From NCBI RefSeq assembly GCF_003330765.1, contig NZ_CP024902.1, positions 3,162,001-3,226,000 on the forward strand: 64,000 nucleotides of DNA, in the 5' to 3' direction. Under the pieces are notes generated by a model. It saw only the letters and a list, made by a program, of their open reading frames with translations. It ran no database searches and had not been told where the DNA came from. This document shows positions 38,834 to 41,295 of this stretch, piece by piece. This stretch comes from Burkholderia pyrrocinia (GTDB lineage Bacteria > Pseudomonadota > Gammaproteobacteria > Burkholderiales > Burkholderiaceae). The first letter of the stretch is position 1, and each line of letters begins with the position of its first letter. The translations under genes and the position numbers were made by a program.

Positions 38834-38969
38834 GCGCCCGCGGATCTGTCGCTTCGCGCCAGCCCACCGAGGGGGCATCCCCAAAGGGGACTTCCTTCGG
38901 GGCGAAAAACTTCTGGCGGCCCGACGTTTTCTTGAGCACGCGGCCCACGCCGCGCCCTTCGCCTTTTCG

Positions 38970-40100: not shown

Positions 40101-40928
40101 TCAACGCTGGCAGGTCGGGCAGAAATAGGTCGACCGCTGGCCCTGCACGATCTGGCGGATCGGCGTGGCGCATACGCGGCAAGGCTGGCCCGCGCGATCG
40201 TAGACGAAGCAGTCGAGCTGGAAATAGCCGCTTTCGCCGTTGCTGCCGACAAAATCTCGCAAGGTGCTGCCGCCGCGCTCGATCGCGTCGGCGAGCGTCG
40301 CGCGCACCGCGTCGGCCAGCCGCTCGTAGCGCGGCAGCGAGACCTTGCCGGCGGCCGTCGTCGGCCGGATGCCGGCGCGGAACAGGCTCTCCGACGCATA
40401 GATGTTGCCGACGCCAACGACCATGTCGCCCGCGAGCAGCGCCTGCTTGACCGACACCGTGCGGCCGCGCGTGCGCGCGTGCAGCAGCGCGCCGGTGAAC
40501 GCCGGCGAGAACGGCTCGACGCCGAGGCTCGCGAGGAGCGGGTGCGCATGCACGTCGCCCGCTTCGCGCGGGTGCCACAGCACGGCGCCGAAGCGGCGCG
40601 GATCGCGGAACCGCAGCACGAATTCGTCGAAGATCCAGTCGATGTGGTCGTGCTTCGCGGCGACGGGCACGCCGGCCGCGGGCAGCACGCGCAGCGTGCC
40701 CGTCATGCCGAGATGGACGATGAACCAGCCCGCGTCGACCTCGAACAGCAGGTACTTGCCGCGACGCTCGACGGCGAGCACCTCGCGCGCGCGCAATTGC
40801 TCGGCGAGCCCCGCCGGCACGGGCCAGCGCAGCATCGCGGTACGGACGTCGACACGCTCGACGCGGCGGCCCGCGACAAAGGGCTCGATGCCCCGGCGCG
40901 TGACTTCGACTTCTGGCAACTCTGGCAT
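40101..40928 (-). CDS. mutM: Formamidopyrimidine-DNA glycosylase
   Basis: A 275-residue Fpg that excises 8-oxoguanine and related lesions. The N-terminus MPELPEVE supplies the catalytic proline and glutamate, and the C-terminal zinc finger is CRVCATPI...CPTCQ. ATG 40928 is fixed by the N-terminal proline requirement. Only 18 bp separate this start from the large composite palindrome at 40947, so the promoter must lie inside that element. mutY follows 24 bp downstream, making a small GO-repair operon. Confidence 0.97.
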
Positions 40929-40946: not shown

Positions 40947-41232
40947 TAGGGTCTGTTTACATCTGGAACGCACATGCGTTGCCACGAGAACGGCCGCTCG
41001 CGAGGCGCGCGACGCCGCGAATACTGACGTATTCGCAAGGAGCGCAACGCGGCGAGCGGTCGTTCTCGTGGCAACCCCAAATTAAAAAATTCATGTCACG
41101 GGAATGCCCGAAATCGCCCGTATGGCGGCGTCGCTCGTCGCTTGTTTGGCTCGCCAAACGGCGCTCGTCGCTTCTTGCCATACGGGCGATTTCGGGCATT
41201 CGCATGTGCGTTCCAGATGTAAACAGACCCTA
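40947..41232. repeat. Composite palindromic element, MITE-like
   Basis: A 286-bp non-coding element bounded by perfect 32-bp inverted repeats (40947-40978 and 41201-41232, beginning TAGGGTCTGTTTAC). Inside are two large hairpins. Arm A pairs 40978-41001 with 41052-41075 (24 bp, one G.T) and contains a smaller hairpin GCGAATAC/GTATTCGC at 41017-41036. Arm B pairs 41102-41126 with 41177-41201 (25 bp, perfect) and contains GTTTGGC/GCCAAAC at 41144-41159. An AT-rich linker (41076-41101) joins them. The ends could carry a TA target duplication. No transposase gene is present. Confidence 0.85.
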
Positions 41233-41264
41233 TCACGATCGTGCGTGTATTGTAGCGAGCGCGT

Positions 41265-41270
41265 TACAAT
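41265..41270 (+). promoter_or_regulatory. Possible -10 element of the TPR gene
   Basis: TACAAT lies 26 bp before the ATG and just outside the composite palindrome. The -35 would fall at about 41242-41247 and is weak, so this is tentative. Confidence 0.35.
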
Positions 41271-41295
41271 CGGTTGAAACATCGAACGGATTTCC

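What the first reader, a model, noticed from the sequence alone, without database searches (positions are those of the whole stretch)
40947..41232. 286-bp three-armed composite palindrome (MITE-like) on the mutM promoter
Perfect 32-bp terminal inverted repeats enclose two separate large hairpins (24 and 25 bp), each with its own nested hairpin, joined by an AT-rich linker: a cloverleaf when single-stranded. The ends could be flanked by TA duplications, as in IS630/mariner or some IS5-type elements. It sits 18 bp from the mutM start and 63 bp from the TPR gene, so it must supply or displace their promoters. No coding capacity is seen. It could be a non-autonomous transposon, a target for a RAYT-like enzyme, or a structured regulatory RNA.
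Basis: partly seen in the sequence, partly recalled or inferred. Interest (0 to 1): 0.75.

Follow-up and report, generated by a model that had tools for sequence, protein, structure and literature searches.

The report
Directional Y-shaped mini-transposon in Burkholderia operons
This stretch is one copy of a widespread non-coding hitch-hiking transposon of Burkholderia that folds into a Y and lands at gene ends and starts; one of its two sister families mostly sits the same way round relative to transcription, which hints that its RNA matters to the genes around it.

Summary
In detail: a perfect 32-bp terminal inverted repeat encloses two nested hairpins (RNA fold -202.5 kcal/mol, z -21). It is mobile DNA: five near-full copies in its own genome, matches in 61 of 65 Burkholderia genomes. 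An IS5-family insertion sequence of about 830 bp in other Burkholderia has the same ends. TA lies on both sides at 59 of 86 sites. So it is a MITE with IS5/IS427-type ends. (1) Where both neighbour genes point the same way, hairpin 2 is transcribed first at 44 sites, hairpin 1 first at 8 (p 4e-7); a sister family of the same plan shows 21 against 27. (2) Stems change on both sides together (257 double changes against 37 in shuffles), while the hairpin-2 apex stays alike between the families (48 of 51 bases, its stem 27 of 50; one pair compared). At mutM the conserved promoter-like block lies outside the element, so the element should lengthen the mutM leader, not replace its promoter. That its RNA acts on neighbours is inferred, not shown; directional insertion is the main rival.

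The parts
40949..41230 (-). Family-A MITE, GGG...CCC, between two TA; minus strand is the strand that mutM transcription would read (hairpin 2 first)
40947..40948 (.). TA, left copy of the presumed target duplication
   Evidence: 59 of 86 sites have TA on both sides
41231..41232 (.). TA, right copy of the presumed target duplication
40949..40978 (+). left terminal inverted repeat
   Evidence: outer 15 bases equal the right end of the IS5-family IS in L120
41201..41230 (-). right terminal inverted repeat
40978..41075 (.). hairpin 1, with apical hairpin at 41017-41036
41076..41101 (.). AT-rich linker between the hairpins, the least conserved part
41102..41201 (.). hairpin 2; its apex (about 41127-41178) is the part most alike between families A and B
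40101..40928 (-). mutM (formamidopyrimidine-DNA glycosylase); start codon 40926-40928, 18 nt from the left TA
41247..41273 (.). conserved block with two facing -10-like hexamers (ATTGTA, TACAAT), probable mutM/TPR promoter region, outside the element
   Evidence: at most 1 mismatch in 32 of 32 relatives; reading as promoter is inference, the consensus scan found none

Best explanation
A copy of a non-autonomous IS5-type MITE. A transposase supplied in trans by an IS with the same ends put it into a YTAR site and TA was duplicated (ends, target and empty sites shown; movement inferred). Such sites include stop codons: TA plus the first G of the element remakes TAG, so insertion between genes of an operon spares the upstream protein (seen at one junction read in relatives). 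Once in place it lies in mRNA, between genes or in a 5' leader; here between the probable mutM promoter and the mutM start codon. Family A is found mostly with hairpin 2 first in the transcript (shown as a count). The cause is inferred: in that orientation the folded RNA is tolerated by, or helps, expression of the downstream gene, while the reverse orientation harms it and is lost. My odds: IS5-type MITE 0.93; orientation bias real 0.9; RNA- or transcription-level selection after insertion as its cause 0.5.
For: Copies in 61 of 65 genomes; 9 filled and 23 empty relatives at this site; IS5-family IS with the same ends; TA both sides at 59 of 86 sites; coxA-upstream site filled in one genome and continuous in 36, flagellar-gene site filled in 2 and continuous in 62 of 65; tandem orientation 44:8 against 21:27 in sister family B; 40 of 40 downstream genes scanned, of 62 listed, have Pfam domains in the called direction; annotated example in Paraburkholderia sprentiae; covariation above shuffles and slides; hairpin-2 apex kept between families.
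Against: No expression data. No intact partner IS in this genome. Within single sites stems also decay: 88 pair columns with mismatches and 58 with G-U against 70 double changes, so no strong proof of selection on the fold after insertion. The bias is as strong at sites seen in one genome as at shared sites, which fits directional insertion as well. The 8 exceptions are not younger. Downstream genes form no regulon. Openness of reading frames does not explain the orientation: both strands are about equally open.
Confidence: 0.68

Rival explanations
1. Passive MITE with directional insertion: the transposase complex or the state of the target (transcription, stop-codon context, replication) fixes the orientation at insertion, and the RNA does nothing.
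For: Same skew at unshared sites (31:4) and shared sites (14:3) before one orientation was corrected; target YTAR is near-palindromic but its surroundings, such as ribosome sites, are not.
Against: Family B uses the same kind of target (CTA..TAG, TTA..TAA) in operons without skew, 21:27. Needs a family-A-specific transposase property that nothing here shows.
Confidence: 0.3
2. A fixed structured RNA or riboregulator of mutM, not mobile.
For: Strong fold and covariation.
Against: Absent from 23 of 32 relatives at this site, many unrelated sites, transposon ends and TA target, no Rfam match near a gathering score.
Confidence: 0.02
3. REP/RAYT-type palindrome moved by a tyrosine transposase.
For: Palindromic, between genes, many copies; one Y1_Tnp gene in the genome.
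Against: The 3.3-kb stretch with that gene holds no such end or core. IS5 ends and TA target instead. The GTAG tag of REPs (PMC3733652, passages) is not at the ends.
Confidence: 0.02
4. A protein-coding palindrome such as those of Rickettsia: an ORF of about 86 codons runs through the element.
For: Longest ORF of 80 codons or more in 68 of 74 copies in the favoured direction; commonest length keeps frame (34 of 67 sites are 285 nt).
Against: The other strand is as open (69 of 74); lengths 284, 286 and 287 shift the frame at 26 of 67 sites.
Confidence: 0.04

Closest known systems
IS5-family IS of L120/L121 (about 830 bp; IS427-like, label recalled)
   Same: Outer 15 bases of its right end identical, left end 14 of 15; CTAG surroundings
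   Different: Carries a transposase in two frames; interior unrelated; absent from this genome
MITEPsy1 of Pseudomonas syringae (PMC3189936, passages seen)
   Same: Small IS5-like element without genes, inserts at CTAG or YTAA
   Different: 100 nt with 18-nt repeats and a 4-nt duplication there; no two-hairpin interior or orientation bias in the passages seen
ERIC (IRU/RU-1) of enterobacteria (PMC3049150, PMC2229807, passages seen)
   Same: MITE-like palindrome in operons whose effect on transcripts depends on orientation
   Different: Other sequence and hosts; effect shown by experiment there, only a genomic bias here
Correia/NEMIS of Neisseria (passages)
   Same: MITE co-transcribed with neighbours, folded RNA
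   Different: 155 or 107 bp and RNase III processing reported there; not tested here
RUP, BOX and SPRITE of pneumococcus (PMC3049150, passages)
   Same: Dispersed folded repeats, RUP ends like those of an IS
   Different: Reported enriched between convergent genes; family A has 7 convergent and 24 divergent sites

Membership tests
IS5-type MITE | terminal inverted repeats shared with an IS5-family IS | tested here: met
   L120, L121
IS5-type MITE | short target duplication, TA | tested here: met
   59 of 86 sites; empty site
IS5-type MITE | dispersed copies, no transposase gene | tested here: met
IS5-type MITE | moved in trans by the IS transposase | not testable with these tools
   needs a mobilisation assay
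IS630/mariner MITE | ends shared with an IS630-family IS | not tested
   no IS630 search was made; the partner found is IS5-family
REP/RAYT system | repeats flank a RAYT gene | tested here: not met
Rfam RNA families | match above a gathering score | tested here: not met
   3 matches with E up to 1, all far below gathering
ERIC-like (works like) | orientation-dependent effect on co-transcribed genes | not testable with these tools
   only the genomic orientation bias was counted

The most novel reading that the evidence does not exclude
A superfamily of mobile RNA elements of Burkholderiaceae in which transposon ends and stems are exchangeable, always rebuilt as matched pairs, while a hairpin apex of about 53 nt is kept because a host factor reads it; one family has become a directional cis-acting part of operons and leaders, kept only when hairpin 2 is transcribed first.
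Probability: 0.22. Interest if true: 0.85.

Novelty: new variant of a known kind. Interest (0 to 1): 0.57.

Why it matters
Bacterial MITEs are mostly treated as passive. Here two sister families with the same plan and target differ in one measurable way, orientation to transcription, a natural controlled comparison for asking whether mobile palindromes become working parts of operons. Their stems also offer a large data set on how long palindromes keep both arms matched.

Tried and rejected
RAYT as mover. Terminator or promoter as cause of the orientation: one search found no sigma-70-like site and one weak terminator-like site, on the plus strand (the disfavoured direction), against 0.6 expected by chance; not enough to explain the bias, not excluded either. 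Openness to translation: rejected. A common regulon: none seen among 40 genes. Phages: no match. Rfam. Coding element. IS630 and family-B partner IS: not searched.

Literature: ten searches. No listed title or abstract start described this family in Burkholderia; the library lacks most subscription papers and ISfinder was not at hand, so this is weak evidence of novelty. Four papers were opened, passages only: PMC3189936, PMC3733652, PMC3049150, PMC2229807.

Four independent insertions at the mutM site: the tree of 33 rows needs 4 changes. All filled alleles with both ends seen share one altered junction and no empty allele seen has a TA there, so one insertion plus exchange of alleles between species is preferred; not proven.

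Corrected on the way: family-B orientation was wrong for 19 of 89 copies, redone by BLAST strand. L069 was mis-oriented and flipped; it is still mis-oriented in alignment A1 and was left out of the all-copy count and. The first A-B comparison used a wrongly turned B copy and is replaced. Rows dropped: L040 and L070 (ends not found), one B locus of 90, L308 and L310; 72 of 74 references went into A1 (L322 and L331 left out for ragged ends); copies outside 280-290 nt were not aligned. Copies with like flanks count as one site, represented by one copy. Gene starts come from a simple caller that can place them too far upstream (in L068 by 18 nt against the annotation); strands are safer than distances.

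Full report
What is there. Positions 40949-41230 read GGGTCTG...CAGACCC between two TA dinucleotides. The ends form a perfect 32-bp inverted repeat with TA included; inside lie two nested hairpins and an AT-rich linker. The stretch folds as RNA to -202.5 kcal/mol (z -21) and as DNA with z -19.

Copies. The own genome (8.0 Mb, three contigs) has five near-full copies, 87-100% identical, the window's own included, and further matches at 72-75%. The latter belong to a second family, B, with ends AGGGCCTGTTCCCGCTAATAACGGGC and the same two-hairpin plan. Matches to the family-A query occur in 61 of 65 Burkholderia genomes, and in 67 of 299 genomes drawn from the family, in 9 of 25 genera; matches to a family-B query in 57 of 65. 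The two queries partly catch each other's family. Three B-type ends in the own genome sit in palindromes of only some 30-40 bases (L072, L073, L074). A small hairpin around CCCCTTGGGGG is nested in 20 of 148 A and 5 of 89 B copies.

Who could move it. I looked for these ends in 36 loci (30 best PF13340 hits, 5 PF01609, 1 Y1_Tnp). Two, L120 and L121, are ISs of about 830 bp with ends CTAGGGTCTGTTYACATTC; one end of L121 has 2 mismatches. Their frames match NCBIfam transpos_IS5_3 and Pfam DUF4096 / DDE_Tnp_1. DNA matches to L120's IS occur in 24 of 65 genomes, mostly partial, none in the own genome.

Target. Of 86 family-A sites 59 have TA on both sides, CTA..TAG 26 and TTA..TAA 15 times; of 69 B sites, 36. 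Upstream of a cytochrome oxidase subunit I gene (the gene before it I take for coxB, not tested) G006 is filled, while 36 genomes show one unbroken match. In the 30 of them that were read, none has a comparable insert; most have a stop codon at the junction, followed by the ribosome site. In the filled allele TA plus the element's G gives TAG. Before a flagellar rod or hook gene, G033 and G061 are filled, 62 genomes have one long match and one a partial match. Of 44 favoured tandem sites 16 have the upstream stop exactly at the edge.

The mutM site. Of 32 Burkholderia relatives 9 are filled (one seen only at its right end) and 23 empty. The block 41247-41273 is kept in all 32 with at most 1 mismatch. 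If it is the promoter, the element adds about 280 nt to the mutM leader. The tree of the neighbouring DNA needs 4 changes.

Orientation. Neighbour genes were called per flank by codon usage. Family A: 148 copies, 86 sites. After a BLAST-strand check: '--' 44, '++' 8, divergent 24, convergent 7, undecided 3; binomial p 4e-7. With both genes within 150 nt the count was 38:5. In the favoured case the transcript reads hairpin 2, linker, hairpin 1, next gene. In the own genome all five copies have the hairpin-1 side towards a gene that reads away from it, three of three tandem ones included. Family B, same caller: 69 sites, '--' 21, '++' 27, divergent 12, convergent 8, undecided 1; p 0.47; Fisher A against B 2.2e-5. 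In divergent sites the hairpin-1 side is nearer to a start in 17 of 24 (p 0.06), in B 8 of 12: no clear difference. All 40 downstream genes scanned, of 62 listed, have a Pfam match; kinds are mixed. A PGAP-annotated case in Paraburkholderia sprentiae agrees; a Caballeronia copy (L069) is among the 8 exceptions.

Structure and evolution. On 72 family-A copies 99.1% of cells pair; 56 of 94 pairs have changes on both sides; 257 such cells against 36.6 in shuffles and 9-29 when slid. Shuffles do not remove relatedness. Between copies, double Watson-Crick changes outnumber G-U and mismatches (225, 28, 57; 43 more are one-sided changes at pairs whose commonest form is G-U), but within the same insertion site the order is 70 double, 58 G-U, 88 mismatched pair columns over 23 site groups. 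I read this as arms kept matched in the spreading lineages, by need for pairing or by arm-to-arm copying, with decay after insertion. Between one A and one B copy the hairpin-2 apex agrees in 48 of 51 bases, its stem 27 of 50, hairpin-1 apex 50 of 63, its outer stem 27 of 38, ends 39 of 62, linker 10 of 21. Of 20 further loci, chosen because part of the query matched, 16 hold an apex match of 39-51 of 53 bases, several with other stems and ends.

Conclusion. The MITE reading is well supported. The orientation skew is a solid count in this sample, with a sister family as control. Its cause, selection on RNA or directional insertion, is open. The best known parallel in effect is ERIC (PMC3049150, PMC2229807; passages seen); it is not a member of that family on any evidence here.

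Noticed in passing
38877-38894 (-): A lone copy, 2 mismatches, of the small palindrome GAAGTCCCCTTGGGGGAC that is nested in some MITE copies; it lies between two convergent ORFs.
   Followed up: partly
L435 (G092, 1.7-Mb genome of another genus): Element with other ends and stem but 46 of 53 bases of the hairpin-2 apex.
   Followed up: partly
L072, L073, L074 (own genome): Palindromes of about 30-40 bases made of little more than family-B ends.
   Followed up: no
L118 (own genome C1:379383): A single RAYT-like Y1_Tnp gene, 237 codons, with no repeats of this kind around it, between an outer-membrane-like ORF and a glutamate-synthase-like ORF (names by eye).
   Followed up: no
L027, L031, L032, L043, L049 (mutM site): Shortened versions of the element (252 and 162-164 nt) with inner parts of the hairpins lost, at the same place.
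   Followed up: partly
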